A stretch of 64,000 nt of DNA, from the NCBI GenBank assembly GCA_037179385.1, contig CM074187.1, positions 15,811,450 to 15,875,449 of the forward strand, read 5' to 3'. Every line of letters starts with the position of its first letter. Positions within the stretch are counted from its first letter, which is position 1. Shown here in pieces: positions 4,901 through 51,600 of this stretch. The stretch is from Holothuria scabra. Lineage: Eukaryota > Echinodermata > Holothuroidea > Aspidochirotida > Holothuriidae. The translations under genes were made by a program, and so were the position numbers. The notes beneath the pieces are model-generated. The model worked only from the letters and a program-made list of their open reading frames with translations, did not search any database and was not told the DNA's origin.

Positions 4901-7900
4901 AAATAAATTTAGCACAACGATTTTGCAAGGACTGAAGGTGATTAAGGTCCTTTGATGAAGCACCATATAAAAGGGCATTGCGGTAATCAAAACATGATAG
5001 GAGAAAAGCACGGACAGCAGAATGACGAGTCTCTTCATGAAGGTACCGACACATACGAAATAAATTCCTAAGATGATAATTACAAGATGAGACTAGGCTG
5101 TTAACCTGTTTCGTCATTTTAAAGTTTCAATCAAACATAATTCCTAAATTACGAATTTCACTAGAGGGGTTGATATGACTGGCTCCAACTTCTAAATGCA
5201 GTGAAGGAAGTTTTTGGAGACTTTGTTTGTACCAGCTATAAAAAACTCAGTTTTGTCATTATTTAATTTTCTCCTTTTTCTGAATCACTGTATTATGTCC
5301 TAGTTTTTAATAGTTGTACAGGTATATTCAACTACTTCCATTCCTATCTTTGTGCTGTGCCTTTGCTTATATTATTGGAAGGTATGCAAAACTGAAATTA
5401 AGTTGCTATCATAGACATATACTATGTACCGTATATTCCCTAATTAATGCCCCCCTCCCCCCCTTAATAAACACCTCCCTCAAAATTTTTAAAATTTTTT
5501 TCTTTTTTTAATTTGTGAAGCCAAGTCCTTCTCGCGCTATAGGCCAAAACCACAGATTAAGCCTAAAGTTACCATTACAACAATAGCCTAATGTCAAAAA
5601 AAAGTTTACCTTTTCAAATGTAGATCTCCACACCATACACATTGAAGTGTTAGAAACACAAAATAACACTTGTGTAGGTTCTAGTGATAAGTAAATTTTT
5701 TTATTAAAATATACCCTCAAATAAACACCCCCTTTTCAAAAATGTGCATTATATCATAAGGGAATAGACTGTAAATAAAACCAGAATGCAAAAATGCATT
5801 GAGGTTTCGATGATACATACATGCTCTTTTCAATGAAATGCTACATTTCTTGTAAGAACTGGTGACCCGAAGTGACCTTTGACTCCACATGTTAGTAACT
5901 GGTTTTTTTCTTTAAACCCAAACAATTCTACAAATTTCATACTGTGCCTTAAGATATTTCGCAAACAATCAGCTTACATCATACACATCAACATATCAAG
6001 TTTGAAATGAATCCCAAGTTTCCTACCTTAAGATATTGTGTTAAAGAGTTTTTCAGGATTTGTCCCCTTCTGACCCCAAATGACCTTTGACCTCTACCAA
6101 AATAAAAAGGATTCTTCTTTACATCATAATACATCTACATATCAAGTCTGAAATGAATCCAACTTTCCTATCATGATGTATCATGTAAACAAGGATTTCA
6201 GTGTTTGAACCCCATGTGACCCCAAATGACCTATGACCTCCACCAAAATTCTTGGGTTTTTTCTTACATCATTACGCATCAACATATCAAGTTTGAAATG
6301 GATCAAAGTTTCCTACCTTGAGGTATAGTGTAAACCAGGATTTCCCGGGTTTGACCCCATGTGACCCAAAATGACCTTTGACCTCCACCAAAATATATCC
6401 AGTTCTTTCTCACATTATAACGCATCAACATATCAAGTTTGAAATGAATCCAAGTTTTCTATCTTGAGATATTGTGTAAACAAAGATTTTGGTCTTTGAC
6501 CCCCTGTGACCCCAAATGACCTTTGACCTCCACCAAAATATATCCTGTTCTTTCCTACACCATTATGCATCAACATATCAAGTTTGAAATGGATCAAAGT
6601 TTCCTACCTTGAGGTATAGTGTAAACCAGGATTTCCGGGGTTTGACACCACGTGACCCGAAATGACCTTTGACCTCCACCAAAATATATCCAGTTCTTCC
6701 TCAAATTATAACGCATCTACATATCAAGTTTGATATAAATCCAAGTTTTCTATCTTGAGATATTGTGTAAACAAAGATTTTGGTCTTTGACCCCCTGTGA
6801 CCCCAAATGACCTTTGACCTCCACCAAAATATATCCCGTTCTTTCCTACATCTTAACGCATCAACATATCAAGTTTGAAATTAATCCAAGTTTCCTACCA
6901 TGAGATATCGTGTAAATAAGGATTTCAGGGTTTGACCCCACATGACCCCAAATGACCTTTGACCTCCACCAAAATCAATAGGGTTCTTCCTTACATCATA
7001 ACGCATCTACATATCAAGTTTGAAATTAATCCAAGTTTTCTATCTTGAGATATTGTGTAAACAAAGATTTTGGTTTTTGACCCCCTGTGACCCCAAATGA
7101 CCTTTGACCTCCGCCAAAATATATCCCGTTCTTTCCTACATCTTAACGCATCAACATATCAAGTTTGAGATTAATCTAAGTTTCCTACCATGAGATATCG
7201 TGTAAATAAGGATTTCAGGGTTTGACCCCACATGACCCCAAATGACCTTTGACCTCCACCAAAATCAATAGGGTTCTTCCTTACATCGTAACGCATCTAC
7301 ATATCAAGTTTGAAATTAATCCAAGTTTTCTATCTTGAGATATTGTGTAAACAAAGATTTTGGTCTTTGACCCCCTGTGACCCCAAATGACCTTTGACCT
7401 CCGCCTAAAATATATCCCGTTCTTTCCTACATCTTAACGCATCAACATATCAAGTTTCAGATTAATCTAAGTTTCCTACCATGAGATATCGTGTAAATAA
7501 GGATTTCGGGGTTTGACCGCACATGACCCCAAATGACCTTTGACCTCCACCAAAATCAATAGGGTTCTTCCTTACATCATAACGCATCTACATATCAAGT
7601 TTGAAATTAATCCAAGTTTTCTATCTTGAGATATTGTGTAAACAAAGATTTTGGTTTTTGACCCCCTGTGACCCCAAATGACCTTTGACCTCCACCAAAA
7701 TATATCCCGTTCTTTCCTACATCTTAACGCATCTACATATCAAGTTTGAAATTAATCCAAGTTTTCTACCATGAGATATCGTGTAAACAAGGATTTTGGG
7801 GTTTGACCCCACGTGACCCCAAATGACCTTTGACCTCCACCAAAATCAATAGGGTTCTTCCTAACATCATAACGCATCTACATATCAAGTTTGAAATTAA

Positions 7901-10900
7901 TCCAAGTTTCTATCTTGAGATATTGTGTAAACAATGATTTTGGTTATTGACCCCCTGTGACCCCAAATGACCTTTGACCTCCACCAAAATCAATAGGGTT
8001 CTTCCTAACATCATAACGCATCAACATATTAAGTTTCAAATTAATCCAAGTTTTCTACCATGAGATATCGTGTAAATAAGGATTTCGGGGTTTGACCCCA
8101 CATGACCCCAAATGACCTTTGACCTCCACCAAAATCAATAGGGTTCTTCCTTACATCGTAACGCATCTACATATCAAGTTTGAAATTAATCCAAGTTTTC
8201 TATCTTGAGATATTGTGTAAACAAAGATTTTGGTTTTTGACCCCCTGTGACCCCAAATGACCTTTGACCTCCGCCTAAAATATATCCCGTTCTTTCCTAC
8301 ATCTTAACGCATCAACATATCAAGTTTCAGATTAATCTAAGTTTCCTACCATGAGATATCGTGTAAATAAGGATTTCGGGGTTTGACCGCACATGACCCC
8401 AAATGACCTTTGACCTCCACCAAAATCAATAGGGTTCTTCCTTACATCATAACGCATCTACATATCAAGTTTGAAATTAATCCAAGTTTTCTATCTTGAG
8501 ATATTGTGTAAACAAAGATTTTGGTTTTTGACCCCCTGTGACCCCAAATGACCTTTGACCTCCACCAAAATATATCCCGTTCTTTCCTACATCTTAACGC
8601 ATCTACATATCAAGTTTGAAATTAATCCAAGTTTTCTACCATGAGATATCGTGTAAACAAGGATTTTGGGGTTTGACCCCACGTGACCCCAAATGACCTT
8701 TGACCTCCACCAAAATCAATAGGGTTCTTCCTAACATCATAACGCATCTACATATCAAGTTTGAAATTAATCCATGTTTCTATCTTGAGATATTGTGTAA
8801 ACAATGATTTTGGTTATTGACCCCCTGTGACCCAAAATGACCTTTGACCTCCACCAAAATCAATAGGGTTCTTCCTAACATCATAACGCATCAACATATT
8901 AAGTTTCAAATTAATCCAAGTTTTCTACCATGAGATATCGTGTAAATAAGGATTTCGGGGTTTGACCCCACGTGACCCCAAATGATCTTTGACCTCCACC
9001 AAAATCAATAGGGCTCTTCCTTACATCATAACGCATCTACATATCAAGTTTGAAATTAATCCAAGTTTTCTATCTTGAGATATTGTGTAAACAAAGATTT
9101 TGGTTTTTGACCCCCTGTGACCCCAAATGACCTTTGACCTCCACCAAAATCAATAGGGTTCTTCCTCTCAGTTAGGGGTATCTGTGTACCAAGTTTGAGA
9201 ACTGTCGGACTTTCCCTTCTCAAGATATCGTGTAAACAAGCAAAGTGTCACAAACACACACACATACACACACACATACACACACACATACACACGCACA
9301 TACACACATACATACACACACACGCCATCATGAATGCATAGGTTTCTCTTTTCATCGAAACCAAAAAAACTCCCAAGATTAAAGAAATGTGAGAGCATAT
9401 CTAAATGCGGTACAGTACCTTCATTTTTAAGAGCTGATGTTTCAAAGAAGAGGGCTCCAATAGATGCAGCAAACTGGACACCTTCCTCTATATGTACCTG
9501 CCTGTGTTCCACCAAATCACATTTGTTTCCCAAAACACAAATCACTGGAAAGAGTTATCAAATGAAATTTGTTCAACTTAACTATCTGAAAAGTGTGATC
9601 ATGTCAAGCGCTATTTAAAGGAATAGTCCAAAGCCAAATTTCATTCATTTCCCATGTTCAGTTCTCAAGATATTAGCGATTGAATGTGACAAATTTTCTA
9701 CATAAAATGTACTTGGAGCACACAGGTGTGATGTCATGGCTTCACATCATCAGCCAATCAATGTTTTGCATTTATTTATAATTTACCACTAATTTTATGA
9801 GACAAAAATTTTATATGTAAATACCATTGTTGCATCCTGAGCAATGGGATTTTAAGAACTTCATGTGCCTTAGGGGCAAGATAACATTTCTAATCAATTC
9901 AAGGTCAAACTACAGTACAGTAACAGGAAGAGAAATTTAAAAAAAACCAAACATTGGCTAACATAGCGAATCCATGACATCACACCTGCTTGCTTCAAGT
10001 TAATTTCAATTGCTAATATCTTGAAAAGCAAGCATGGGAAATGAATGAAACTTTTACCAGAATGCTTAGACTATGCTCCTCTTTAGCATATCAAACATAC
10101 ATTAGGTTCTGGACTACTATTTTTTTATTACTAAAAATAGTCCCCTTTATGAAGGAGTCCTGCAAAGATACAAATTATAATGCTTCTAAGTTCATCTACT
10201 GGGTATTGCTACTTGGAAGTGCTTCTCCAGAAAATGTCCATAACTATGTTTCACTTAAATGATTTTATACTCCAATAGGAAAAGATTGATCTCTGCAAAA
10301 CATGACAACCTGTACAGCAAAGGACAATTACTGTCTTATGATGACAATGTCATATACAGTATTGTCAATATTGCTCCTGGGATGCGTTTTGCTTTGTAAA
10401 TGGGATGTTTGTTCCACAGAACACTACTGTTTAGTGTAACTTACACAGGGCTCTTGGAAAAGAAACTTTTTACCCTTTACAAAGTACTTTTAATGACATC
10501 TCTAGTGAACTTACTTTCTTACTGTTGAGGTATGCCATCCCATTTGTCCATCTGAACACAATGTGCTATGGGACATGCAGGATACTGTTAGGAAATCCTG
10601 CCCCATCCCCACCCAATTCAGATCTCCTTAAAGTGTTTATACAAAATGTCTCCCTATTAAAGTTAATTATACATAAATGATTCTCACAATCTTTGACAGT
10701 GCACCAGAGAAAATATTTATGCAGTAAGTTCAAACAGTTTAAGTCCCACTAGTTAGACAACTGCAGGAGTCTACTGATTCATTTCCATGTTGCAAACCCC
10801 TTGTAAATTTTTAGCAGCATGCAGGATTCATCTTGTAACTAAAATTAGCTCTTCAGATGCCTTTAAATTTAAAAAAAAAAATTAATGTTTAAAAGTAAAT

Positions 10901-25674: not shown

Positions 25675-25886
25675 CTGGGGCCTGTTCCACAAAGAGTTAC
25701 GCACGATCTTAAGTTTGATTCACCATACTGTTAAGCCAACAGTAAATCAAACTTAAGATCGTGCGTAACTCCTTGGCCTGTTCCACAAAGAGTTACGCAC
25801 GATCTTAAGTTTGATTCACCATACTGTTAAGCCAACAGTAAATCAAACTTAAGATCGTGCGTAACTCTTTGTGGAACAGGCCCCAG
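25675..25886. mobile_element. Foldback MITE family P, tandemly doubled copy
   Basis: The outer ends are CTGGGGCCTGTTCCACAAAG and its reverse complement. Inside are two nearly identical units, each a hairpin with 27-bp perfect arms (GAGTTACGCACGATCTTAAG..., reversed on the other side) around an inner TACTGTT/AACAGTA stem. The whole can fold on itself or as two hairpins. Confidence 0.85.
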
Positions 25887-29755: not shown

Positions 29756-29773
29756 AAATGTTCACTTCAATAA

Positions 29774-31975
29774 ACCAGAATGCAAAAATGCATTGAGGTT
29801 TCGATGATACATACATGCTCTTTTCAATAAAATGCTACATTTCTTGTAACAACTGCTGACCCAAAGTGACCTTTGACTCCACCTGTAAGTAACTGGTTCT
29901 TCTTTTAACCAAAACATTTCTATATTCAAAAAGCCAAATTTCATACTGTGCCTTAAGATTTTCTGCAAACAAGGTTTTCAGAGTTTGATGCCAGGTGATA
30001 CCAGATGACCATTTGCCTCCGCCAAAAACAACAGGCACAGTACTTTCAACTCACCATAACACATCCACATACTAATTACGAAATCCATCTCAGTTTCCTA
30101 CCTTGAGATATCCCATTTTGACAAGTTTTTCAAAGTTTGACCGATAATGACCCCAGATATCCTTTCACCTCCACAAAAAGAAACCCTTATACAGACCATC
30201 TTCTCACCATAATTCATCCACATACTAATTATGAAAGCCATCCACGTTTCGTACCTTGAGCTATCCTAAACAGGTTTTTCTGAGTTTGACCCCTTATGAC
30301 CCCAAATGACCTTTAACCTTTATCAAAATCAATAGCGTTCTTAAATTCTTCCTTACATCATAACGCATCAACATATCACGTTTGAAATCAATCCAAGCTT
30401 CCTACCTTGAGATATTGTGTTAACAAGGTTTTCAGGATTTTTCCCCCTCTGACCCCAAATGACCTTTGGTCTCCACCAAAATATATAGGATTCTTTTTTA
30501 CATCATCATACATGAACATATCAAGTTTGAAATGAATCCAAGTTTCATACCATGATGTATCATGTAAACAAGGATTTCAGGGTTTGACCCCATGTGAACC
30601 CAAATGGCCTTTGACCTTCACCAAAAGTAATTGAGTTCTTCCTTACATCATAACGCATCAACATATCAAGTATGAAATTAATCCAAGTTCCCTTTCTTGA
30701 CTTTAGTGTAAACAAGGATTTCGGGGTTTGACCCCATGTGACCACAAAGGACCTTTGACCTCTACGAAAATAGAACTGGTTTTTTCTTACATCATAACGC
30801 ATCAACGTAGCAAGTTTGAAATCAATCCAAGTTTCATACCTTGGGATATCATGTAAACAAAGTTTTGGGGGTTTGACCTCACGTAACCCCAAACGACCCT
30901 TGACTTCCACCAAAATATATAGGATTCTTCTTTACATTATAACCCATCAACATTTCAAGTTTGGAACGAATCCAAGTTTCCTACCTTGAAATGTAGTGAA
31001 AACAAGGATTTCAGGGTTTGACCCCATGTGACCCCAAATGACCTGAGACATCCACCAAAATCAATTGGGTTGTTCCTCACACCAAAACGCATCAACATAT
31101 CAAGTTTGAAATTAATCCAAGTTTCCTACCATGAGATATCGTGTTAACAAAGAATTCAGGGTTTGACCCCATGTGACCCCAAATGACCTTTGACCTCCAC
31201 CAAAATGAATCGGGTTCTTTCTTACATCATAACGCATCAACATAAAGTTTGAAATGAATCCAAGTTTCCTACTTTGAAAAATAGTGAAAAAGGGCTTTCA
31301 GGGTTTGACCTCACGTGACCCCAAACGACCCTTGACCTCCACCAAAATATATAGGATCTTTCTTTACATTATAACCCATCAACATATCAAGTTTGAAGTC
31401 AATCCAAGCTCCTACCTTGAAATGTAGTGAAAACAAGGATTTCAGGGTTTGACCCCATGTGACCCCAAAATGACCTTTGACCTCCACGAAAATGAATCGG
31501 GTTCTTTCTTACATCATAGCACATCAACATATCAAGTTTGAAATGATGCCAAGTTTCCTACCTTGAAATATAGTGAAAACAAGGATTTCGGGGTTTGACC
31601 CCATGTGACCCCAAATTACCTTTGACCTCCACGAAAATGAATCGGGGTTTTTCTTACATCATAACGCATCAACATATCAAGTTTGAAATGAATCCAAGTT
31701 TCCTACCTTGAAATGTGGTGAAAACAAGGATTTCAGGGTTTGTCTCCATGTGACCCCAAATGACCTTTGACCTCCACCCAAAATTAATTGGTTGTTCCTC
31801 ACATCATAACGCATCAACATATCAAGTTTGAAATGAATCCAAGTTTCCTTCTTTGAAATATAGTGAAAACAAGGATTTCAGGGTTTGACCCCATGTGACC
31901 CCAAATGACCTTTGACCTCCACAAAAATGAATCGGGTTCTTTCTTACATCATAACGCATCAACAGTTCAAGTTTG
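29774..31975 (+). mobile_element. Family A minisatellite element, copy 2, 3'-truncated
   Basis: It has the same 5' end as copy 1 (ACCAGAATGCAAAAATGCAT) followed by about 14 diverged core units. It breaks off inside a unit at about 31975 without the CA tract or 3' hairpin. Only about four units keep the perfect DR1 motif. Apparent open frames across it are artefacts of the repeat. Confidence 0.72.
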
Positions 31976-32753
31976 AAAAAGTGTTCGCGTTCAGCGTTCG
32001 TGTGCCGTTGGACATCAACAGAAATGCGGAGCGAACCGTGGAATATGTTTACTAATTGTACAGTTTGGCCCTTGAAGTGCAAAGGCCAGCCTAGGCCAAG
32101 GCGACGAAAGTACCTTTTACTTTCGTAATTTATTGTTTATTTTTCATTCATTTTTTGCGGGCAGGAACAGGGGGGGCCATGGCCCCCTTGTGCCCCTGTC
32201 TATACGCCAGTGTATCTGAATGAAGAATCTTCCAAACAGCAGTCCAAAGAGAACTTTCATTGATTTCACACATATGGTGATTTGGTAGACTGAATAACGC
32301 CCAATCCAAACGAACTCCCAATACGAAGCTAGCAAAAACTACCGTATAATTTCATACATCAACATGTCTGAATCTAGCTACGTTAAAAAGATTTTAAAAC
32401 ACGACGTAAAACTGTGTAAAAAACGTCCAGATATCAAGACTACATGTCACATAGATTACAAAATACCTACTGGTTATAACATTAAAGTAAATTGGTTGGT
32501 ACGCATATTTTTTCTTCATACCTAAGATATTGGGGAGGGGGATTTGATGTATGATGTTCCCCTCAAAAAATAACCCAAACCATAACCCGTGACCGCCCAG
32601 TGCAAGTCAGATGCTGTAATCACTTGACAATACAGATCTTGATTCGCAAGTTCAGGAAAATTTTACAAAAGTTCAGGAAATGGGTCATATCTGAACTTTA
32701 GCCGGCTAGTGATACAGGCCTAGCTCTCTAGCTTGCTAGTATTATACCCAAAC

Positions 32754-33215: not shown

Positions 33216-33982
33216 GAGTTGGACTGTATGAATCCATTTTTCATGCTGTTATAAACATGGTGAAACAGTTTAAACTGTCTTTCTGGGGTGGCGCAATACC
33301 ATTTATCCCACGCGCACTTCAGAACATCATGATAAAGCTTGGAGTAGCTCGTTTACCGTCTCCTGTAAAAGAGATCCGCGGGTAACTGGTCCCTTTGTAG
33401 TATTGACATCTAAGGATTCATCAAAAGTTGAGATACTATTGTAGTTATCTACGGTGGCGGTTACTTTTGTCCGACACCAGACCCTTAAACAGAGCATAAT
33501 CTTTGCACCACTGAGACACGGAAGTCTGTCCGCATTAGCTAGGTTTTGGCTACCGTTTGGGAGGGGGTGTGCGGCCTTCTGCCTCCTCCCGCCCCCATCC
33601 CCTACGCCCATGCCATTAACTTAACACACTTTATAAGGTTACTTTCCCGGCCTGTAGCTCCTTGTGAAAGTTTTCATCCTTGATCTACCACCCATCTGAT
33701 TAAAGCTCACATTATGAACTTTTATGGCAATTTAAAAATTTTTATACCATGGCCACTGAAGTTTGAGCTATAATTGGTTGTATGCCAGGTACGCCGCCAT
33801 GATCTTTGCTCAAAGAGGGACATGTTCACGCAAAATAAAAATATGGCATTAAGGTGGACATCAAGTTGGAAATTTAAAAAGTATATGAAAAATGGAAAAA
33901 GTGGAGTTTGTTTTGAAGAAAAATTTTGAAAATAGTGTGACTTTTTATAATGGAAAATTAAAAAGTTGGGGTGTTTTATTGA

Positions 33983-35953
33983 ACCAGAATGCAAAAATGC
34001 ATTGAGGTTTCGATGATACATACATGCTCTTTTCAATAAAATGCTACATTTCTTGTCACAACTGCTGACCCAAAGTGACCTTTGACTCCACCTGTAAGTA
34101 ACTGGTTCTTCTTTTAACCAAAACATTTCTATATTAAAAAGCCAAATTTCATACTTTGCCTTAAGATATTCTGCAAACAAGGTTTTCAGAGTTTGATGCC
34201 AGGTGATACCAGATGACCATTGACCTCCACCAAAAACAACAGGTAGCCTACAGTACTTTAAACTCACCATAACACATCCACATACTAATTAGGAAATCCA
34301 TTCAAGTTTCCTACTTTGAGATATCCCATTTTGACAAGTTCTTCAGTTTCACCGATCACGGCCCCAGATGTCTTTTCACCTCCACAAAAAAGAAACCTTA
34401 TACAGACCACCCTCTCACCATAATTCCTCCACATACTAATAATGAAATCCATCTACGTTTCGTACCTTGAGCTACGCAAAACAAGTTTTTCTGAGTTTGA
34501 CCCCTTATGACGGCAAATGACCTTTGACCTCTACCAAAATCAGTAGGATTCTTCTTTACATCATAACGCATCAACATATCAAGTTTGAAATGAATAGAAG
34601 TTTCGTACCTTGACATATCGTGTGAACAAGGATTTCGGGGTTTAACCCCAAATGACCTTTGACCTCCACGAAAACAAATCGGGTTCTTTCTTACATCATA
34701 ACGCATCAACATATCAAGTTTGAAATCGATCCAAGTTTCCTACCATGAGATATCGTGTTAACAAGGATTTCAGGGTTTGACCCCATGTGACCCCAAATGA
34801 CCTTTGACCTCCACGAAAACAAATCGGGTTCTTTCTTACATCATAACGCATCGACATATCGAGTTTGAAACTAATCCAAGTTTCTTACCATGAGATATCG
34901 TGTTAACAAGGATTTCAGGGTTTGACCCCATGTGACCCCAAATGACCTTTGACCTCCACGAAAACAAATCGGGTTCTTTCTTACATCATAACGCATCAAC
35001 ATATCATGTTTGAAATTAGTCCAAGTTTTCTATCATGAGATATTGTGTAAACAAGGATTTTAGAGTTTGACCCCATGTGACCCCAAACGACCTTTGACCT
35101 TCACGAAAACATATCGGGTTCTTTTTTACATCATAACGCATCAACGTATCAAGTTTGAAATTGATCCAAGTTTCCTACCATGAGATATCGTGTTAACAAG
35201 GATTTCTGGGTTTGAACCCACGTGACCCCAAATGACCTTTGACCTCCACCAAAATCAATAGGGTTCTCTCCTCACATCATAAAGCATCAACATATCAAGT
35301 TTGAAATTAATCCAAGTCCTCACATCATAAAGCATCAACATATCAAGTTTGAAATTAATCCAAGTTTTCCATCATGAGATATCATGTTAACAAGGATTTC
35401 AGGGTTTGACCCCATGTGACCCCAAATGACCTTTGACCTCCACAAAAACATATCGGGTTCTTTTTAACATCATAACGCATCAACATATCAAGTTTGGTTT
35501 TGATGCAAGTTTCCTACCATGAGATATCAGGTAAACAAGGATTTCGGGGTTTGATCCCACGTGACCCCAAATGACATTTGACCTCCACCAAAATCAAAAG
35601 GGTTCTTCCTTACATCATAAAGCATCAACATATCAAGTTTGAAATTAATCCAAGTCCTCACATCATAAAGCATCAACATACCAAGTTTGAAATTAATCCA
35701 AGTTTTCTATCATGAGATATCGTGTAAACAAGAATTTCGGGTTTTTGACCCCTGTGACCCCAGATGACCTTTGACCTAAACCGAAATAAATAGGGTACTT
35801 CCTCTCAGTATGGCGTATCTGTGAACAAAGTTTGAGAACTGTCCGGCCTCCCTTCTCACGATATCGTGTAAACAAGCAAAGCGTCACAAACACACACATC
35901 CACACACACGCCACCATGAATGCATAGGTGTCTCTTTTCATCGAAACCAAAAA
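33983..35953 (+). mobile_element. Family A minisatellite element, copy 3
   Basis: Complete layout: the family A 5' end, about 12 core units, a short CA tract (35888-35910) and the 3' end TTTCATCGAAACCAAAAA. The 3' hairpin has a mismatch (GGTGTC). A partial unit is duplicated at both 35310-35370 and 35650-35710, 340 bp apart, marking an internal array duplication. About seven perfect DR1 motifs. Confidence 0.75.
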
Positions 35954-37926: not shown

Positions 37927-39674
37927 ACAAGAGCCCAAGGGCACTATGGTTCCTTGCATTAAAGATGATATTGTATTAAGGTAGTCCCAAGGTAAGGCAT
38001 AATTTGCACCTTTAACCCCAATGACTTTTGGCCATCACCCAAAAACATAGGGGCACATTAAATTTCAAAATCATACAAGCACTTGCCGTTTGAGAGAAAT
38101 GGAACACTAAACTTTTCAAATTATCACACTGCACACTGCCCACTTCCATGCGACAAATACATTTATCACCTTTCACTAAAATGTCATTTACTTGAGTTTG
38201 GGGTAGTATAGGAGGTTAGTTAATTGCCTTTTTGGTCAATCTCAACAATTCAAATCCAGACCTTAAAAAGAAGTCACAAAGGTCAAATACAGTCAAAGTA
38301 GATCAAAACTGATTTTAAATAAACACAGTCTCTTCTGCACCAAAGAAATTTAACAGTCATCTAGTCATTCCTGACCACCAAAATTTATGATGGATGACTA
38401 GAAATTATGTCATGGTTGTCCTTTAGACTACCCAATGTGTTTGCCTGAAAAGCAAAAATAAGGAAAAGCCCACAATTCTGCTACTAAAGGCAGCCCGATA
38501 GTGATTTATTACCACCAATTTCTTCTTCACAATTTAGCTAGAAGACCAAGAAACAAACATAGCTCTGTAGAATCTAATAAATGACTTTCAACTTGACCTT
38601 TTAACCTAAAGAGGGTGTTAGAAACAGCATTGTAGTCCCTAGGGTAAAAGCAGAGGTAAAGAAGAGAAACTGCTTTCATATTTTACTATTGAAATTGGAA
38701 TCTTAGCTTGCACTGTGAATAACTTTATTCAATACTGTATGTGAGGAAAAGGTTGTTTTTAAAAATAATTGCATTACTGTCCTGATTGTTAACTAAACTG
38801 CTTTTAGACTGAGAGGGGGTTATAATTCTTCTTTTCTTTTATACATTGCATTTGTCTAATGGCATTAAACTTCAGCTGGACTTTTAAACCAATTGAACAA
38901 AGACCCAAAGAGTCTTCACGTGCACTTTACTTAGACGAACACAACTTTCCATTATTTCCACTATGTTACTTGGTTATTGAGTAATTGCACCGCATACCTG
39001 GCATTGCAATAGGCCTACATATGACCTACATGTACACACTAGCCTGTCATTTAAATGTCAGTAACTCAAGTAACGAACATTGTAGGAGGGTAGTGTAATA
39101 GCCTTTTTGGTTCGTCTGATCAAGACAAATCTTGACGTCACAAAAAAAGTCTCAAAGGTCAAAAGGTCAAATGAGGTCAAGTGAGGTCAAGGGGGGTCAT
39201 CACGTGCATTTCACTTAGACAAACACAAATCTCCATTACACCACCCCTCTAAAATGTTTCAGTGGCAAGATATCAATAAAACATTACTTTTTGACCTTTT
39301 GACCCTTTCCAATTATTTTGGTTAATGTACCAACATTTTCACCTCCTACCAATCTAACTTATCCTAAAATGATGCCACTGCTTGAACAACGGATACTGAG
39401 TTACAGCTACTAACAGAAATTCAGTTTTTGGCCTCTGGTGATCACCAGTGACCTTTGACCTCCACCAAAAACGATAGGGCACATCTACTCCACAACATCT
39501 ACATACATACCAAGTTTGAAAAAAATTGATCACTCGGTTATTGAGTTATCGCACCACATACCTCGCATTCCAATCCGTCACATACACACACACACACACA
39601 TACACACACGCACACACACATACATACGCCAAGGTGACTGCATAGGTTCCTTTGTTACACAAGGAACCAAAAAA
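37927..39674 (+). mobile_element. Family B minisatellite-type element
   Basis: It starts with a mini-hairpin GCCC-AA-GGGC followed by CTATGGTTCCTTGCAT. It ends with a CA/TACA tract (39580-39627) and GGTTCCTT-loop-AAGGAACC plus AAAAA. The 5' GGTTCCTTG is complementary to the 3' CAAGGAACC. The core is less repetitive than family A but retains TGACCTTTGACCTCC (39449) and a cluster of AGGTCA half-sites (39154-39198). Confidence 0.65.
39154..39198 (+). promoter_or_regulatory. Cluster of AGGTCA half-sites (DR2, DR4, DR4)
   Basis: Four AGGTCA words run in the same direction with 2-, 4- and 4-base spacers, plus a fifth GGGTCA. Such spacings are bound by nuclear receptors with RXR partners in animals. 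Activity here is unproven. It lies in the family B element, about 1.7 kb downstream of the PSMA2 stop. Confidence 0.4.
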
Positions 39675-40984: not shown

Positions 40985-42620
40985 CTGAAAATTTAAATTA
41001 ATAGCATTATTTTACGACATACAGGAAAAAATACTAATCAGCAGTTACACAACAAAAAAGAACCAGGATGCAAAACTATTTATAAAGTACTCTGATGACA
41101 TTCAAAGCTTTCTGTGAAAAAAAGTTGCTCATGAATGATACCTTTAACAGATGTAAGCCTAAAAATCTGTTGCCTTTTAATTTGAAAGTCTCTTTGTACA
41201 GAAAACAACAAGCTATCTAGCTGAATTTGAAAGTAAAACTTGAGAGTAGGACACATTTATCAAAACCTCACATAAAGCAACACCATTCCTGTTAGCTTTG
41301 TATTTTTTGACTAATTTTACTTCCACAAAGTGAAAAACAAAGGTGTACAAATTACTTTTTATACAGGTTGACCTCTGCTACTTCCTTCATGTATTACTTT
41401 CAAAAGTAGTAAATTCATTTGATATTTTTCTACAGAACCACATGTTGGAATTAAACAAAAATTCACTGGAATGCTTATATTTGACTTCCTCTTTTATTCA
41501 TAAAATGAAAAACTTCAAAAACATTCCTTTTCAAAATTTTGGGGAAGTTTTTATGCATACATAACAATGGCAGGAAGAATACGCCTATGTGGGGAGGCAT
41601 GGTAAGACAAAATGTATAAATCAATGCCAATGCAGTAATGAGAGTATGTTCATCCTTAACTAAAAAGCCAAAAGGCTTAGTGATTCCTTGCCATAAGATA
41701 TATATTGTAACAAACATGAATTGCCCACATGACAAACATGAGATCCCACACAGTTATCCTAATTGAGATATCATGTTAGAAAGGTCAAAACCTTTTGAAA
41801 TTTTGTAACCCAAATAAACTTTCACCTCCACTTAATAAAACAATAGGGATAACCTACCCTACTGTATATGGCCATCAACATGCTACATATGAACAACTCA
41901 CAAGCTAAGAATGGGATCCCTCACAGTCATCCTTCTTTAAATATCATCTCTATAAAGTTTTGACCTTTTGTGACCCCAAATAACCTTTGACCTCTACAAA
42001 CAAGAGAAAACTCCCAAACCGATATGATGCTGCAGGTAACGAATTGTATTGGGTCGCGTCTAATAACTTGATAAAGAAATGAACATTTATTTTTAATCAA
42101 AATTATAGAACTTTATTTTGTTGAGTTTTAGCTATAGGGGCAGCTCTTTTGTATTTTATTTTTTTTGAATGCCTTTCCCAATGGCTATGATGTCCTTGAA
42201 AATTAACAAAAACTGATAACCCTTTTAAACCGGAATCTAACAAGACTTGTTACTTTGCTTTTTGTCTACTTGAAGACACAACACACAAGTTTCCCTTGTT
42301 TGATACACAGTAGGCAATAGTATAAAGTTGCTTTGATTACCTGAACTACTTTAGTATAAGCCTTGCTCAGAGGGCTAAATAGAAGCAGACACTGTTTGTT
42401 CAGTAAATGGTTCAGTCCATTGAGCACCTGGCTCTACAGGCTGTATGATATTCTGTCCAGACACTTTGGTTTGTACTGGCACTCAACTGTGATAAATTAT
42501 GTCAGATAGCAGTGACCAGTTTGAATAGAGGTACATGGTCAGTTACAATTTGATTTATCCAATCAAGCAATCACTGTTCATGCTGACTCAAAGGTATTTG
42601 ATCCAATGAACAGTACTTTA

Positions 42621-42654
<34 letters not shown>

Positions 42655-45600
42655 AATTGTGGAATAAGGGGAAATTTTTGGGCAAAATATCAACGTAAGG
42701 GGGAAATTACCGTTAGGGGGAAAATTTACGTTCCCCTTTACGTTTTCACACACTGTTTTAATGGGAATACGGTAGTGTATAGTAAAATATATATGGGGGT
42801 ACGTAATATACCTAATTACTTCAATGTTGACCAAATTACGGACTCCTATCTGTTAACACGTACAACAAATTTATATAGATATATATATATACTAAAGTAC
42901 TGTTCATTGGATCATATACATAGATATGTATATAGATATATATATATATATATACTAAAGTACTGTTCATTGTATCATATATATAGATAATTCGGCACTT
43001 AGGGGGAAAGTTGTTGTTGAAAAGTCAACCTTAAGGGGAAAAAATTTTGGGGGCAAAATATAAGTTTCGCCGTTACGTTTCTACACACTTTTTCCATAGG
43101 AATACGTAAACGGACAAGAACGCCCTCCTAGATTTACAAAGTAGGTACAATTACTTCAAAGTTGTCAAATTTACGGACACCTAGCTGTTAACACGAACGG
43201 ATGGCTGGCCATTGAAATAACGTTGTTTATATTTTTAGACATTAGGGCGAATACTTTTTCTTATGTATTGCATTGTTATTTTTTCGCCCTATGTACGTGC
43301 AGATATAACAATTTCCCCCTAAGGTGGGAATTAGCATGCCTAAACAAAGATCTTGGTGTTTTGAGCCACTTCCCTTCTGTGGTTTACAGGGAAGCCAGTA
43401 CTGTTTAACATTCTCGATAGGATTTGTATTGTTTTTTTTTTGTTTTGGTTTTTTTCCTGTTGTTTCTAAATTTTTCTTCACTCCACATAGACGCTGATGA
43501 CAAAGACAGGTGTCTTTGATATATACGTTTCTCTTATCTTGTATGTGCTCTAATATTGTCATATTTGTGGTGTTTTCTACTTATTCTTTTATATTACATG
43601 GAGCATACATGGACTTACTTATATAATATATATATATATATATACATAAACATGACGGAGAAACTGTAAAACAACGGTGCTACAGAATTGAAAGGATGGA
43701 TCTCCGAGGAGATACAAATAATGGAATGCTAGAATTTAGATAAATTAAACAGCCAACAGGTTTGAAGTAGAGCTTTCGAGGAATACTACCTCTTTATATA
43801 TATATATATATTTTATAAAACAAATGACCTGTGGTATATTTAATTAATCAATTCCAATTTCCAATTCATGCATGCTCACATATGCTTATGTGGACAGTTA
43901 GCAGCATAAGGTTTGTAAAATAATAATTTTTGACACTAAATTTAATGTTGTCTGCAAGTTTTCTTTCACGTTATCAAAGAGACAATGTTGGTACTTCTTA
44001 AAAGAAATTCTTGTGCATCACACAAAGCAGTTGATCTGTTCAAAGTTTATACTTATGAAGTCAGAACAGTCCTCTGCTTTGTGTGCACAGAAACCCCTTT
44101 CAATCTTTTCAAACTATGGCCCCAAATGACCATCATACAGCCTTTGTTTGAACTCACATGCTCCAGACACAGATACTGCAGGAACTTCCATTTAACAGTA
44201 GGAAATGAGTTTCATGAAAATCTTTTTATACTTGTGGCAAAATCAGCATATCCATGCCAAACATCCCTCACAGTTGCCCTTCTTGAGTTGTAACTTGTTT
44301 GAAAAGTTTGAATGTTTTGACCTCTGGTGACCCTAAATGACCTTTGACCTCCATCCAAAAAACAATGGGGATCATCTACTCAATACAGGCAATCCACATG
44401 GTTAATATAAGATCCCCCACAGTAACCCATCTCGAGATACAGTGTTTACAAGGTTTTGATGTTTTGTCCTCTGGTGATCCCAAATGGCCTTTGGCATCCA
44501 CCAAAAACAAAAGGGATCATTTATTTAATATGAACAATCTACATGCTATGTATGAGATCACTCACGGTAACCCTTCTTGAGATACAGAGTTTACAAGATT
44601 TTGACCTCTTTACCTCTGGTGACCCCGAACGACCTTTGACCTCCTCCAAAAACAATAGGGATCATCCACTCAATGTGGGCAATCTACACGCCAAGTATGG
44701 GATCTCTTGGAGTTACCCTTCTTGAGATATTGTGTTTACAAACGGGTGTCACACACACATACACACTCACATACTTGTAAATGTTGTTTATCCGGGACAC
44801 AGTATTTAACAGAGATGCCAACATTAACATCCAGAAATCACGGAGGTTTCACACAGGAATCAGGGATATTTTTTAGAATTACATGCAACTCAATGGGGGA
44901 AAAGCTTATCTGAATCAGGGAGATTGTCATATTTGCTAGTTGAAATGGAGAAAATCCTTGAATTTTCAGGGAGTCTCCCTGAGAATCAGGGAGAGTTGGC
45001 ACCTCTGATTTAACCTTTCAACCAGGGACGGGCTGTAGAATGGTCTAGTAGTTTGTTTACTTCTAGTAAATGATGTGCCTTGGTGCAACAGAAGAGGAGG
45101 GAACTCAAAATATTTTCAATCAATATTTATCTAAATAACTGTAGGTGTATAGGATTCTCCACAGAAAACAGTTGACGTAACGTGATACACACATGTATTT
45201 GCAACACGGATGGAAAACACCCCTATCACAGTGGGAACTGATGTTACATTGTCTTTATTTCAATAGATATTTTCATGGAGACATCATTTAGCACTAAGGG
45301 GCTATTTAAAACTGATTTAAAACGAGGACTGTCCCCTGTGTATGTGAGGTCCCCGATCAGTAGGTGTGTATTCACCAAAATGTCCCTGGTTGACGGCGTT
45401 TGTCAACAGGTGCACACAAACACATGACATCACCATTGCAGATTCCTTGCCTGCCTTCTCCAAGGAATCAAAAAAGCCCTCAGAACTAATACTCATTTGG
45501 GATCAATCTTTTACAATGTCAAATTTTTACCTTGAGTGTTAGTATTGCTGTATGTACTGCATCTTCCAGCTCAAGGTCCTCATTGTAACGTTTTTCAAGG

Positions 45601-48600
45601 AATGTCTTTCCATTGATGTGATTCTTCCCCATGGCAGTAGCTTTCCAAGGGAAATAAGCACCAGATGGATCACATTGAAATAAGAATGGCTTTTTGTCAT
45701 CCTCATCCCAACCAGCCACTAAAAGTGAGACTCCAAATGGTCTGACTCCTCTAGAGAGTAGAATGAAAGGGAACGTTAACCTTTCAAAACACATTCAATG
45801 GTACATGGCTCACATCTATTACTAACAGAAGACATACAGAAGACCTCACTCTGTTGTGATGTTGCTGTAGGAATGACACTTACCTCCAACTTGACTTACA
45901 ACAAATATCCACAATGACTAAGATAGGCATTTAAGATTACAAAATTTCTCCACTAAACATGCAATTGGGAAAAGAAAATCATTGTCCTTTTCTTAAAATG
46001 ACATAGACTAATATGCAAGCCGTTTGGCTCAAAAGAAGGGTTTTAATGTATAGCTTTTAATAGAGCTACTGTAGGGCATCCATAAACAATCGAAGGTCAA
46101 AATAATGGAATGAAAAATAAAGCAATCGCATGCCTCAAAATTGAAGGCCTGTGGAAATGAATGAAACTTTCACCAGAGCGCTTGAGAATATGTTGCCCTT
46201 TAACACATCAAACATAACTTTTGTTCTGGACTATTATTTTAATAGGTTATAATAATCAACACTTTACATACAGCGGCTGTAGTTCAGCAGAGTGAGCTAT
46301 CATTGTATGAGTGAGTGCAACTTCATACATTTTTTTTGGACTCCTTGCACCAAAGGCACAAACTTCCAAACATGGGAGCCATTCAAGTCTTTTCAGTAGG
46401 AAACACATTGGACAGTCTTTTTCTCTAATGAATTGCACACATGTTTGTAAATATTCTTACCCAGTTTGTGTATATTCTTGCATTACTGAAGCTACTCTCT
46501 GAACCAACTGAGATGTTGGAATCTGTTCTTGATATGTCAGAAAATAAACCTGAGCTATCTTCCTTGCTCTCCTCACAAGTAACCTGTATAATTAAAATTA
46601 TTGAAAGAAAAAGGAAAATAAAACACTTGGAATTACTTATTTAATGTGATAGTCTATTACATTTTTCTTTTCCTTCCAAGTTTAATCGAAGTATCTTTCA
46701 CGACGTGCCCAAACTTTTACCAAATATACACCAAAAAAAAAGTGATAACTGAATACTTGTAAAAGTTTATTTTCACTAGGGTTTACAACTGAATTTGTTT
46801 TTAGACATACTGTACAGTAAATAGCTTCTTACCTGTAATCTGGCCCCATACCACTGTAAACCATTCCAATGTTCTTGGTAATCATTTCAACTTTATGGAC
46901 ACTACCTTCATCATACAACGAAGATTTGTGTTTCTTTTCTGTTGCAATAACGACACCATTTGATGCTTTGATACCAACTGAGGGGGCTCCTGCTGCCACA
47001 GCACTCAAGGCATATTCAATCTGAACAAGCTTCCCTGAAGGGCTGAAAGAAGATATACAGAATAAAAAGTTATTCAGTGAATGTGCATTACTCAGCAGCT
47101 GAAAAGATTAGTAAGGGAGTTCAGTAAGCCTAAATGTTCTAATTTGCTTTTAGTTCCCATTTTCAGTTCTCAATTTACTCCAAAATAAAGGTACTATACC
47201 TTCCACCTAAGTAAAATTAAAGCAAGCAAATTCTGAAAAACCAGAATGCAAAAAAGCATTGAGGTTCCAATTATATACCAATGTCTAGATTCAAAATAAT
47301 GCTACTGTGTCTCATATCTTCTCAGTCAAATGATATACAAACATGATTGAAAAATAATTTTGTGTTATTCCAGATGACCTTTGACCTCCTCCAACAACAA
47401 TAGGGCCCATCTTCCAACCATGATATGTCTCTTACCAAATATGAGATGTACTTATTAAAGTTATCTATCTTGAGCTACTGTGTTAACTAGGTTTTCTGAG
47501 TTTGGAAAAAAACTCCACCAAAATAACAAAAATTACCTCATTCTACCGTACACTGCCCGAAGAACTCCTTCATCTGATGTAGTTACTCATGTTTAATGTG
47601 ATGAGAGCATAAACTAGGTTATTAGGTTATTTTGCTGTGTTTGTAACTTGACCCAACTTAACGTCTTTTTCAGGCAGGTTAGGTCAACAAGTGAAACAAG
47701 TTTTGCACGGTACTGTGTGTAAGGCTCCAAAACGCCTTACTGCTGAGCGGACTCCATTGCTCAACACTTCTGTGCTACCCTGTTGATTCGCACAAAGGAC
47801 TTAACTATATGGCTTGCTATGTAGGTAACAATACGTTACTGTACAAAGTCAATAAAAATGGTTGCATACTACACATATATGCAAAGTGCATCAATGCCGG
47901 TGCCATTTCGAGATTAACAAAGATTAACGAAGAAAATTTTTAATTAAGTAGAGCTCTCTTAAGGCCAAGGGAATAAAAAAGTCATACTGTAGAATACCAT
48001 TTGGGTGATTAAATAAAACACACTTTTTTTTTCATTATTCATTTTTTGGCAATGCTGGTAATTACAAGCAAGTACCCATGTATAAATAAATAATAATATG
48101 TACAGGTACATATGAAGGAAAGAGCCAAAAATGCACTTTTTACTAAGTTCTTTTTATGTTCTCTTCTGTACAGGTTCCTGGGTGCACTCATTGCACTGGG
48201 GGAAGGTGCTTTCATCATCAGCTACTCCCTCCAAATACTCTACACAGTAGATGCATACTGATTCATTGCCACAGGGGTACAGTACAGCTCACATTCAATT
48301 GGACATGTCTACGCGCAGAGCAAAGCACAGAAAGGCAGAAACAAGCAGAGCAAAGCTGAATCAGGACGATACAAAAATGCCGCGCAGACACTGAGTAGAC
48401 ACTGAGTATAATCCCCAACGTTCCTCTGCGCAGATAAACCTCATTGTGTTTGCACAATAGTCAGAATATTGATCTGTATAGGTTTGCTCACTCTTTCCCA
48501 GTCGTTTTGAAAGAATATGAAAGTAATTCACGAACACAGCCTGCTAGAATTGCTGTGTTAGCGCTGGGAGGGTTAGAGGCGGCCTATGTTGTGATTTGGT

Positions 48601-51600
48601 ACAAATGAACGGGGGAATCGTACCGTAGACCGGGAACTTATGCAATCCCGAAATTGTTTAACATATCCTGTGCGGTAAATGTTACGGCGGGGATTCCGTG
48701 CCTTTGAATCATTTCAGCGGTCAATGTTCAAATAAAAACATTAAGGGGACGGCGATGTTCAAACACCACAATCACGACGCTCAAAAAATCATCACGCCTA
48801 CGAAAAAAAAATGTTTAAAATGTTAACGACCTCATGTAAGGTGTAGACAATCTATCATGTCATTAATTTATTTTAAAAATAGTGATACAACCTTTGCTTT
48901 GAAAACTTGAGTGTACCCCAACAAGCAAAAATGGCTGTGACCGGCTGGAAGAAAACAAATTGGTTAGAAATTTAGGCCTCAAACCCCATCCAACTTGTTC
49001 CATGTTAAGTACTGGCACATAAGGTGCAAAGATAACACTTGGTCACACATAGTTGGTTTATAAAACCAGAATGCAAAAATGCATTGAGGTTTCGATGAAA
49101 CACAAATGTTACATTTCAAAGAGTGCCATCATGCACCATTATCTTCTCATTCAAATGTTATACTAGCAAGTTCAAAAAATAATTTTGTCATTCCAGATGA
49201 CCTTTTGACCTCCATAAAAGCCATACATAGCTAGAATGACAAACAACAGACAGACAAATGGACAAACAGCTATCTTGAGAGATCACATTTAAAAAGGTTT
49301 CCAGCCTTTGACCCCTGGAGGCCCAGATGACCTTTCATCTCTGCCAAAAACTATGGAGACCATCTTCTAACCACAATGCATCCACATACCCAAATATAAA
49401 AACTATCCAAGTTTCCTATCTTGAGATATTGCATAAGCAGGATTTTCAGACTTGGACCAGCAGTGACCCCAGATGACCATAGAACTCCATCAAAAACATT
49501 ATGTACCACTTCCTGATCATAACCCATCCACATAACAAATATGATATCTATCAAAGCTACTTAACATGAGATATCACATAAACAAGGTTTTCAGACTTTG
49601 GCCCCTGGTGACCCCAGATGACCTTTGACCTCTGCCAAAAGCAATAGGGATCATTTACTGACTATAATGCATCCACATACCAAATATGGAATCTATCCAA
49701 GTTACCTATCTTGAGATATGCTGTTAACAAGGCTTCAATACTTTGACCCCTGGTTACCCCAGATGACCTTTGACCTTCACCAAAAACAATATGGACCATC
49801 TCCTGACCAAAACCCATCAAAATACTAAATATTAAATCTATCCAAGTTACCTATCTTGAGATATCCTGTTAACAAGGCTTCAATACTTTGACCCCTGGTG
49901 ACCCCAGATGACCTTTGACCTCCACCAAAAACAATAGGGACCATCTCCTGACCATAACGCATCCACATACTAAATATGACATCTATCCAAGTTACCTATC
50001 TAGAGATACTGTGTTAACAAGATTTTCAGACTTTGACCCCTGGTAACCTCAGATGACCTTTGACCTTCACCAAAAAGCAGTAGGGACATTTACTGACTAT
50101 AGTGCATCCACATACCCAAATATGAAATCTATCCATGTTTCCTACCTTGAGATATTGCCCTAACAAGGCTTTCATACTTTTACCCCTGGGGATCCCAGAT
50201 GACCTTTGACCTCCACCAAAAACAACAGGGACCAACTCCTGACCATAACACATCCACATACTAAATATGACATCTATCCAAGTTACCTATCTTGAAATAT
50301 TGTGTTAACAAGATTTTCAGACTTTGACCCCTGGTAACCCCAGATGACCCTTGACCTCCACCAAAAACAATAGGGACATTTACTGACTATAGAGCATCCA
50401 CATACCCAAATATGAAATCTATCCATGTTTCCTACCTTGAGATATTGCCTTAACAAGGTTTTCATACTTTTACCCCTGGGGACCCCAGATGACCTTTGAC
50501 CTCCACCAAAAACAATAGGGACCGACTCCTGACCAAAACGCATCCACATACTAAATATGACATCTATCCAAGTTACCTATCTTCAAATATTGTGTTAACA
50601 AGATTTTCAGACTTTGACCCCTGGTGACCCCAGATGACCTTTGACCTCCGCCAGAAACAATAGGGGCTATCTCCTGAAGATAATAACATCCACATACTAA
50701 ATATGAAATCTATTCAAGTTTTCTACCTTGAGATATTGTGTTAACGAGATTTTCAGGCGTTGATCCCTGGTGACCCCAGATGACCTTTGAACTACCCCAA
50801 AAACATAAGGCACCATCTACTGACTATAACGCACCCACATACCAAATATGAAATCTATCCAAGCTTCCTATCTAGAGATATTGTGTTAATAAGGTTTTCA
50901 GACTTTGACCCCTGATGACCCCAGGTGACCTTTGACCTCCACCAAAAACGATAGGGTTCTTCCTCTCAATATGGCGCATCTATGTACCAAGTTTGAAAAC
51001 TGTCATGCATTCCTATCTTGAGATATCGTGTTAACAAGCAGTGTCACAAACACACACACATACACACACATACATACATACATACATACACACGCACGCC
51101 ATCATGATTGCATTGGTTTCTCTTATCATCGAAACCAAAAACGCTAAAATGTCAAAAATGTCATATTCCTCCAAAAGAGTGGAATTTAAAGCTTTTGCTT
51201 AAATCATGCATATATTGACATGATGGGTGCTATTCCCGAAAAATAAAGCATTTCACCGACTTGGTAACATCAGATAGTGAACCGCCTACCCCCCACTTCA
51301 CTTTATTATGCTTCTCTTTTCCTCGGAAAATGAGACGTAGGTTAGATGCACTGAAAATTCGGAATGGAATCTCTGACGTATACCGAAAGGAAATACTTGT
51401 ACATCCTTTCGTCCCACAAAAGCGGGACTTTAAACACTTGAAAATAGTCGGTAAGATTTGCAAACTAGAACGAATGTATATGTGATATCTGCACAACCAG
51501 TTGGCCTAAAGCCATTGTCCAATCAGCTATCAGAATTCAGGGATTTTTCTTTCACGTCCGGAGAGGTGTATATAAGCTGTGAATAAACCGTGCTCTGGCA

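What the first reader, a model, noticed from the sequence alone, without database searches (positions are those of the whole stretch)
5865..9240. Mobile minisatellite is a dense array of perfect DR1 nuclear-receptor sites
Almost every 145-bp unit carries TGACCTTTGACCT, whose complement AGGTCAAAGGTCA is the ideal DR1 element bound by HNF4, RXR and COUP-TF-type receptors. Extra TGACCCC half-sites lie just before it. Roughly forty perfect copies occur in this window over the family A, B and C elements, and the motif is better kept than neighbouring sequence. The elements could disperse regularly spaced receptor sites, or recruit a receptor for their own use or silencing.
Basis: partly seen in the sequence, partly recalled or inferred. 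Interest (0 to 1): 0.85.

Follow-up and report, generated by a model that had tools for sequence, protein, structure and literature searches.

The report
Transposon scattering nuclear-receptor binding motifs
A very abundant mobile DNA element in a sea cucumber carries rows of a 145-base repeat whose best-preserved part is a cluster of textbook nuclear-receptor binding motifs; copies that spread keep the motif, but whether any receptor binds it has not been tested.

Summary
The window has 42 perfect TGACCTTTGACCT copies (A 20, B 4, C 7, D 8, three in fragments). The assembly matches Holothuria scabra by published statistics and holds 93,824 perfect copies against 145 for the reversed control. 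The carriers look like HINEs, non-autonomous Helentron elements; no autonomous partner was linked. The conserved feature is larger than DR1: on the element strand AGGTCA-1-AGGTCA-4-GGGTCA-4-RGGTCA (DR1+DR4+DR4), with 45,618 intact copies and 0 in the control. In 12 arrays the four half-site pentamers differ between array consensuses in 1 of 236 comparisons, other columns in 186 of 1,337, while single-unit changes within arrays are about equal (5.0%, 5.7%). So source copies keep the motif and inserted copies decay. Invariant blocks outside the half-sites show that something besides receptors may be constrained, and one flank-first test ranked DR1 only 24 of 146. COUP-TF, HNF4, RXR and TR2/4-type DNA-binding domains are encoded. 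Receptor occupancy, and benefit to the element, are inferred. Verdict: real and strongly patterned; a new variant of transposon-dispersed receptor sites.

The parts
5779..9367 (-). Element A: complete HINE-like element, 145-bp minisatellite array plus CA microsatellite
   Evidence: exact 26-bp end at 5779-5804 and 18-bp end at 9350-9367; array 5973-9166
5973..9166 (-). Minisatellite array of A, about 22 units of 145 bp with a 290-bp higher-order period; 20 perfect DR1
5779..5813 (-). Element 3' end (minus-strand orientation): subterminal inverted repeat TCATCGAAACC, then hairpin AATGCATTTTTGCATT, then CTGGTT
   Evidence: sequence; a 26-bp stretch of it occurs 4,499 times genome-wide, 0 in control
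9341..9367 (-). Element 5' end: TTTTT then GGTTTCGATGA, with a GGTTTC/GAAACC hairpin
9249..9323 (-). CA-rich microsatellite between array and element 5' end
29773..31978 (-). Element B: same element 3' end, tandem units up to 31978, cut off at the other end; 4 perfect DR1
33982..35953 (-). Element C: complete element, 7 perfect DR1
49064..51141 (-). Element D: complete element of a diverged unit subfamily, 8 perfect DR1
47239..47520 (-). Fragment with the same element 3' end (one mismatch in 26) and one perfect DR1; right limit approximate
44307..44741 (-). Three-unit array of another subfamily, one perfect DR1
39420..39674 (-). Single-unit element with perfect DR1 and a different terminal hairpin (GGTTCCTT...AAGGAACC); left limit approximate
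41815..41993 (-). Degenerate two-unit fragment, DR1 with one mismatch at 41981
6352..6384 (-). Example of the composite in one unit of A (window strand TGACCCCATGTGACCCAAAATGACCTTTGACCT); 25 intact composites in the window

Best explanation
The arrays are the central minisatellites of a very abundant HINE-like element (non-autonomous, Helentron-type rolling circle) in Holothuria scabra. Each well-kept unit carries a composite of four nuclear-receptor half-sites, DR1+DR4+DR4 on the element strand, with steps of 7, 10 and 10 bp. Shown: its presence, abundance, and selective retention in source copies with free decay after insertion. Inferred: an NR2-type receptor (COUP-TF, HNF4, RXR or TR2/4) binds the arrays in the germ line or early embryo and opens the chromatin or drives transcription there. 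That would make the copy easier for a Helentron Rep protein to nick and copy, so copies with intact composites leave more descendants. Once inserted, each copy's sites drift, although the total number in the genome stays very large.
For: Element ends with subterminal inverted repeats and hairpins, T-run ends, microsatellite and tandem repeats. 93,824 perfect DR1 and 45,618 intact composites against 145 and 0 for reversed controls. 15 of 15 perfect motifs in 24 sequence-blind regions lie inside units. DR1 differs between array consensuses in 1 of 155 comparisons, other columns in 186 of 1,418; single-unit changes 68/1,430 and 750/13,119; Fisher p 7e-6, and 0.018 with minimum changes. Four TGACC: 1/236 against 186/1,337, p 1e-9, and 6e-4 with minimum changes. 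Stripes: DR4 spacers and sixth positions together differ in 17/113, like the rest (169/1,188). In the first 100 intact composites listed (37 loci) the unconstrained DR1 spacer is T in 98, while columns 66, 68, 69 and 79 vary. At least two other end types carry the same unit, so the unit is not tied to one set of ends. NR2-type DNA-binding domains are encoded. In sea urchin, COUP-TF is maternal and sits on condensed chromatin in mitosis (PMC4227642, passages). No conserved RNA fold.
Against: No binding, accessibility or expression data for this species. The invariant stretch runs on into CTCCAC, and TGAGATAT and AATAGGG are also invariant, which receptors do not explain. Shifting the four-pentamer mask by minus one or plus nine gives as little divergence (2 of 142 shifts; up to 4 in subsets). 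The contrast of pentamers with the 13 tolerant columns in leave-out conservation is weak (p 0.099), and several DR4 spacer columns are nearly fixed. The 12 arrays come from one window and five other loci, and A, B and C are close kin. Flank-first detection ranks DR1 only 24 of 146. The held-out regions had no units. The autonomous partner was not found at the two loci examined.
Confidence: 0.38

Rival explanations
1. The core is conserved for a DNA-level role that has nothing to do with receptors: it helps the array expand or recombine, or is read by the replication or transposition machinery. The likeness to DR1 follows from the short TGACC sub-repeats.
For: Four TGACC sub-repeats at 10, 10 and 7 bp; array expansion is obvious (145 and 290-bp periods); the constrained block exceeds the half-sites (CTCCAC, AATAGGG, TGAGATAT); the one-base-shifted mask does as well.
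Against: The DR1 spacer and both its sixth positions are nearly fixed while columns 66, 68, 69 and 79 vary, as a receptor site predicts. The single-unit element at 39449 and the fragment at 47375 hold perfect DR1. The unit occurs with at least three different end hairpins, so it is not tied to one terminal recognition sequence.
Confidence: 0.37
2. Host use: receptors bound to the arrays recruit silencing (as orphan receptors and TRIM28 do at telomeres) or serve as host enhancers, and the host keeps the sites.
For: Orphan receptors bring H3K9me3 to telomeres in human cells (PMC13187458, abstract). DINE-1-like elements supply MSL binding sites in Drosophila miranda (PMC4067079, Background section read). 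Element A ends about 50 bp from a Ras-family exon. The repeat occurs in Holothuria leucospilota mRNA unigenes, judged by primers.
Against: Single-unit changes inside arrays hit the motif nearly as often as other columns (4.8% and 5.7%), so most inserted copies are not being kept. Individual co-opted copies are not excluded.
Confidence: 0.13
3. No function: the motif looks conserved through recent common ancestry, array homogenisation or a low mutation rate at these bases.
For: Units inside an array are close copies; A, B and C are related; the half-sites contain no CpG.
Against: Single-unit changes occur at an ordinary rate in the motif, so it is no mutational cold spot, while differences between arrays are nearly lacking there; non-CpG columns elsewhere are hardly better kept (0.737 against 0.730 for all other columns). 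The pattern holds in window arrays and in the other loci separately, and with any one array left out.
Confidence: 0.12

Closest known systems
HINE / DINE-1 (non-autonomous Helentrons; PMC4067079: Background, first of three parts of Results, one Discussion section and passages read)
   Same: subterminal inverted repeats, hairpins at both ends, T-rich termini, microsatellite and tandem repeats, high copy number; precedent for carrying binding sites (MSL complex in D. miranda)
   Different: nuclear-receptor composite in the units; subterminal repeat 24 bases from the 3' terminus against about 38-60 in mite HINEs; partner not found
Tsp transposons of sea urchin and pearl elements of bivalves (as cited in PMC4067079; originals not read; Tsp paper not held)
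   Same: cited there as DINE-1-like elements of sea urchin and molluscs, some with tandem repeats
   Different: sequences not compared; nothing on nuclear receptors seen in the passages I read
HNF4alpha sites in Alu repeats (PMC3252374, abstract) and DR2 retinoic acid elements in Alu (PMC1785376, search listing)
   Same: a transposon disperses nuclear-receptor sites in very large number
   Different: Alu is a dispersed retroposon, and its HNF4 sites are described as low-affinity; here perfect DR1 in tandem arrays with retention in source copies; for Alu binding was shown by ChIP, here not
Orphan receptors on telomeric repeats in ALT cells (PMC13187458 abstract; PMC11194075 and PMC7691514 search listing)
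   Same: NR2C/F receptors acting on tandem repeats
   Different: telomeric repeats, with (TCAGGG)n variants proposed as sites, not a transposon; different motif

Membership tests
HINE (non-autonomous Helentron) | subterminal inverted repeats, one close to the 5' end, one inside the 3' end | tested here: met
   GGTTTCGATGA 5 bases from the 5' terminus and TCATCGAAACC 24 bases from the 3' terminus in A and D; 11 bp against 12-15 in mites, and 24 against about 38-60 bases
HINE (non-autonomous Helentron) | palindrome near the 3' terminus | tested here: met
   AATGCATTTTTGCATT 6 bases from the terminus; 26-bp end has 4,499 genome copies
HINE (non-autonomous Helentron) | insertion into T-rich sites without target-site duplication (empty sites) | tested here: inconclusive
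   ends read TTTTT and GGTT on the element strand; no duplication seen by eye in the 20-base flanks of A, C and D; empty sites not searched
HINE (non-autonomous Helentron) | autonomous Helentron sharing its ends | tested here: inconclusive
   69 PF14214 matches, frames up to 2,422 codons; two loci examined: neither end found in the 4.5 and 5.0 kb of L029 and L030; L031 is a Helentron-type Rep remnant (FQQRGSPHIH) invaded by these elements, the nearby 3' end belongs to a separate element
HINE (non-autonomous Helentron) | no coding capacity; microsatellite and tandem repeats | tested here: met
   no open frame above 188 codons overlaps A-D (frames of at least 110 codons listed); arrays and CA runs
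Nuclear-receptor response element (DR1) | two AGGTCA half-sites, direct, one base apart | tested here: met
Nuclear-receptor response element (DR1) | a receptor of the DR1-binding class in the genome | tested here: met
   DBDs best matching COUP-TF1, HNF4alpha, RXRalpha and, narrowly ahead of RXR, NR2C2 structures; that these classes bind DR1 is recalled
Nuclear-receptor response element (DR1) | receptor occupancy and transcriptional response | not testable with these tools
   needs binding assay, CUT&RUN, ATAC-seq, reporter
Tsp transposon / pearl element | sequence kinship with the named family | not tested
   no sequence held; Tsp paper not held

The most novel reading that the evidence does not exclude
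A rolling-circle transposon lineage is under selection to keep a four-half-site nuclear-receptor composite in a tandem repeat of about nucleosome-core length (that length is recalled): it exploits a maternal or germline NR2 receptor for its own spread, has placed tens of thousands of intact composites in one genome, and so acts as a genome-wide receptor sink or a ready-made regulatory grid.
Probability: 0.33. Interest if true: 0.82.

Novelty: new variant of a known kind. Interest (0 to 1): 0.64.

Why it matters
If true, it links a transposon's success directly to a hormone-receptor-type transcription factor and gives a clean system (perfect sites, tandem, about 94,000 copies) for asking whether binding-site arrays help mobile DNA spread. 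It would also mean that receptor studies in Holothuria must deal with a vast pool of repeat-borne sites. Even if receptors do not bind, the contrast between retention in source copies and decay after insertion suggests that something selects on this core.

Tried and rejected
Conserved RNA structure of the unit: rejected (alifold z -0.25 and -0.80, 14 arrays). Rfam families in the window: none at gathering score. A 25-bp core pattern in viral contigs: none, exact matches only. Autonomous partner at C1:5015519: neither end found in 9.5 kb around it; at C1:33391793: nested and separate elements; the other matches were not examined. Papers holding both Helentron and nuclear receptor: none; TGACCCCAAATGACC in papers: none; both in the held library only. 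TGACCTTTGACCT occurs in 10 held papers; of the two echinoderm ones, one is a cloning oligo for a sea urchin tbr3 ORF, the other is the H. leucospilota primer table. NCBIfam gave no match for two receptor domains. Four extra regions (L032-L035) meant as a held-out test had no units, so there is no held-out replication. Flank-first MAFFT test: DR1 rank 24 of 146, kept as a result against; I followed it with the symmetric test because favours the finding flank and keeps some array-end units. From conservation counts I dropped L001-L008 where stated (fetched by the motif); L002, L004 and L008 duplicate their neighbours. Array-end units were dropped (only units bracketed on both sides count), and arrays under 4 units.
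Full report
What is there. The window holds 145-bp tandem units with TGACCTTTGACCT. Counting up to two mismatches there are 61 matches against 2.17 expected, and no shuffle of 100 reached that; 42 are perfect, all on one strand. Single units or small arrays lie at 39449, 41981, 44338 and 47375.

Where it comes from. The window lies in an assembly of 1,192,178,128 bases in 31 contigs, with C1 of 79,750,544 and C10 of 53,516,681 bases. The H. scabra assembly paper gives 31 scaffolds, 1.19 Gb, N50 53.52 Mb and longest 79.75 Mb (PMC11082199, passages). I take this as identification by assembly statistics. That paper lists helitrons at 2.53% and tandem repeats at 4.43% of the genome.

How common. 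Perfect TGACCTTTGACCT occurs 93,824 times (45,861 + 47,963) against 145 for the reversed pattern. The 26-bp element end occurs 4,499 times against 0. In 20 regions of 10 kb taken at fixed places, 15 perfect motifs were found where 15.7 were expected; with four more regions (no motif), all 15 of 15 lie inside units. Units were found in 5 of the 24 regions. The 57 unit matches in L009-L028 extrapolate to the order of 10^5 units; this is a rough figure because units cluster.

What kind of element. Read on the minus strand, A and D begin TTTTT-GGTTTCGATGA with a GGTTTC/GAAACC hairpin, followed by a CA-type microsatellite and the array; they end TCATCGAAACC-TC-AATGCATTTTTGCATT-CTGGTT, i.e. inverted repeat, hairpin, T-ending terminus. 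These are features given for HINEs, the non-autonomous Helentrons (PMC4067079, Background and first part of Results read); that paper says DINE-1-like elements were described in sea urchin and molluscs and that some carry tandem repeats. Distances differ somewhat (24 against about 38-60 bases at the 3' side). Rep-type proteins are present: 69 PF14214 matches, several in frames above 2,000 codons. I could not link one to these ends: at one locus neither end was found in the 9.5 kb examined, and another is a Helentron-type remnant invaded by these elements. The other matches were not examined at the sequence level. Membership is therefore likely, not proven. At least two other end types carry the same unit: GGTTCCTT (39449) and GATTCCTTGCC (L009, L010, L012).

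What is conserved. Aligning 146 units of 24 arrays, the DR1 window has the highest array-weighted conservation, 0.928 against a mean of 0.758, rank 1 of 131; the rank holds in three subsets without motif-fetched loci. In a symmetric test in which each third of the unit is scored only in units found and bracketed by the other two thirds, DR1 scores 0.906 against 0.769, rank 2 of 131, tied with its one-base shift. Of 89 bracketed units, 47 have a perfect DR1 and 25 have one mismatch; in the 37 outside the window these are 13 and 15. Against: flank-first detection gives rank 24 of 146.

The conserved feature is a composite. On the element strand the core reads AGGTCA-1-AGGTCA-4-GGGTCA-4-RGGTCA. 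With spacers left free, 45,618 copies are intact in the genome and 0 in the reversed control; 25 are in the window. In the first 100 places listed (37 loci, all on C1) the free DR1 spacer is T in 98, and the sixth bases of the DR1 half-sites are T in 97 and 97, while the sixth base of the outer half-site is T 48 and C 52, and columns 68, 69 and 79 vary. The other DR4 spacer columns are nearly fixed.

Selection on source copies. For 12 arrays of at least 4 units (120 units; five in the window, seven at five other loci), consensus differences between arrays were set against single-unit changes within arrays. DR1: 1/155 and 68/1,430; other columns: 186/1,418 and 750/13,119; Fisher p 7e-6, or 0.018 counting minimum changes per column. 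Four TGACC pentamers: 1/236 and 109/2,177 against 186/1,337 and 709/12,372; p 1e-9 and 6e-4. Ordinary single-unit change says that the bases mutate normally and that inserted copies are not protected; the near lack of differences between arrays says that the lines that spread kept the core. DR4 spacers and sixth positions differ in 17/113, like the rest (169/1,188). The result holds for window arrays, for the other loci, and with any one array left out. Limits: few loci, related arrays, invariant TGAGATAT, CTCCAC and AATAGGG outside the half-sites, mask shifts of minus one and plus nine that do as well, and a weak contrast of pentamers with tolerant columns in leave-out conservation (p 0.099). 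The contrast is modelled on the McDonald-Kreitman idea (recalled) and is not that test itself.

Receptors. The genome has 48 zf-C4 matches, counted exon by exon. Of 16 fetched, translations of 14 were obtained; four were named by search. One best matches COUP-TF1 (1.1e-45), one HNF4alpha (1.5e-41), one RXRalpha (1.9e-35), one NR2C2 (1.6e-28, with RXRalpha close behind at 1.5e-27). That these classes bind DR1 is recalled. In sea urchin, COUP-TF is maternal and moves between condensed chromatin and nuclear periphery (PMC4227642, passages).

Another species. In H. leucospilota coelomocytes, qPCR primers of three unigenes (6841, 1366, 1518) match this unit with 0 to 3 mismatches, while the 12 primers of other unigenes that I tested have at least 5. 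They are 3 of 13 genes used to validate the LPS response (abstract, sections 6 and 22 and passages). So the unit very probably exists, and is in sequenced mRNA, in a second Holothuria; the unigenes themselves were not seen.

Mechanism. I commit to receptor binding in the germ line or early embryo that helps the element to be copied. Shown: anatomy, abundance, retention in source copies, decay after insertion, receptors encoded. Inferred: binding, chromatin effect, benefit. Nearly as likely is a receptor-independent DNA role of the core. Precedents: HNF4 sites in Alu (PMC3252374, abstract), MSL sites in DINE-1-like elements (PMC4067079), orphan receptors on telomeric repeats (PMC13187458, abstract). 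I found no paper in the held library that holds both the words Helentron and nuclear receptor.

Noticed in passing
window 9405-9554 (-): Exon of a Ras-family gene (PF00071, 4.6e-10; Rab-like by eye) about 50 bp from the end of element A, so A most likely sits in an intron of that gene.
   Followed up: partly
window 39154-39199: A short run of AGGTCA half-sites on the + strand at mixed spacing, about 220 bp from the single-unit element at 39420 and opposite in direction; it might be a relic or a precursor of the unit.
   Followed up: no
window 54705-58085 (-): Open frame of 1,126 codons, coiled-coil-like by eye, with no Pfam match; possibly a domesticated or mobile-element gene.
   Followed up: partly
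window 25679-25871: Two copies of a 96-bp unit at 98% matches that holds an internal inverted repeat, MITE-like.
   Followed up: no
PMC7161275, primer table (passage): Three of the 13 genes used to validate an LPS response in H. leucospilota have both primers matching this repeat, which is very common in H. scabra, so their qPCR may not measure single genes.
   Followed up: partly
L009, L010, L012; window 39420-39674: The same minisatellite unit sits in elements with different terminal hairpins (GATTCCTTGCC, GGTTCCTT, GGTTTC), so the unit appears to be shared between element families.
   Followed up: partly
L031, about 4435-4879 and 8562-9750 in reverse-complement coordinates: A broken Helentron-type Rep gene is invaded by a piece of one of these elements and followed by another.
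   Followed up: partly
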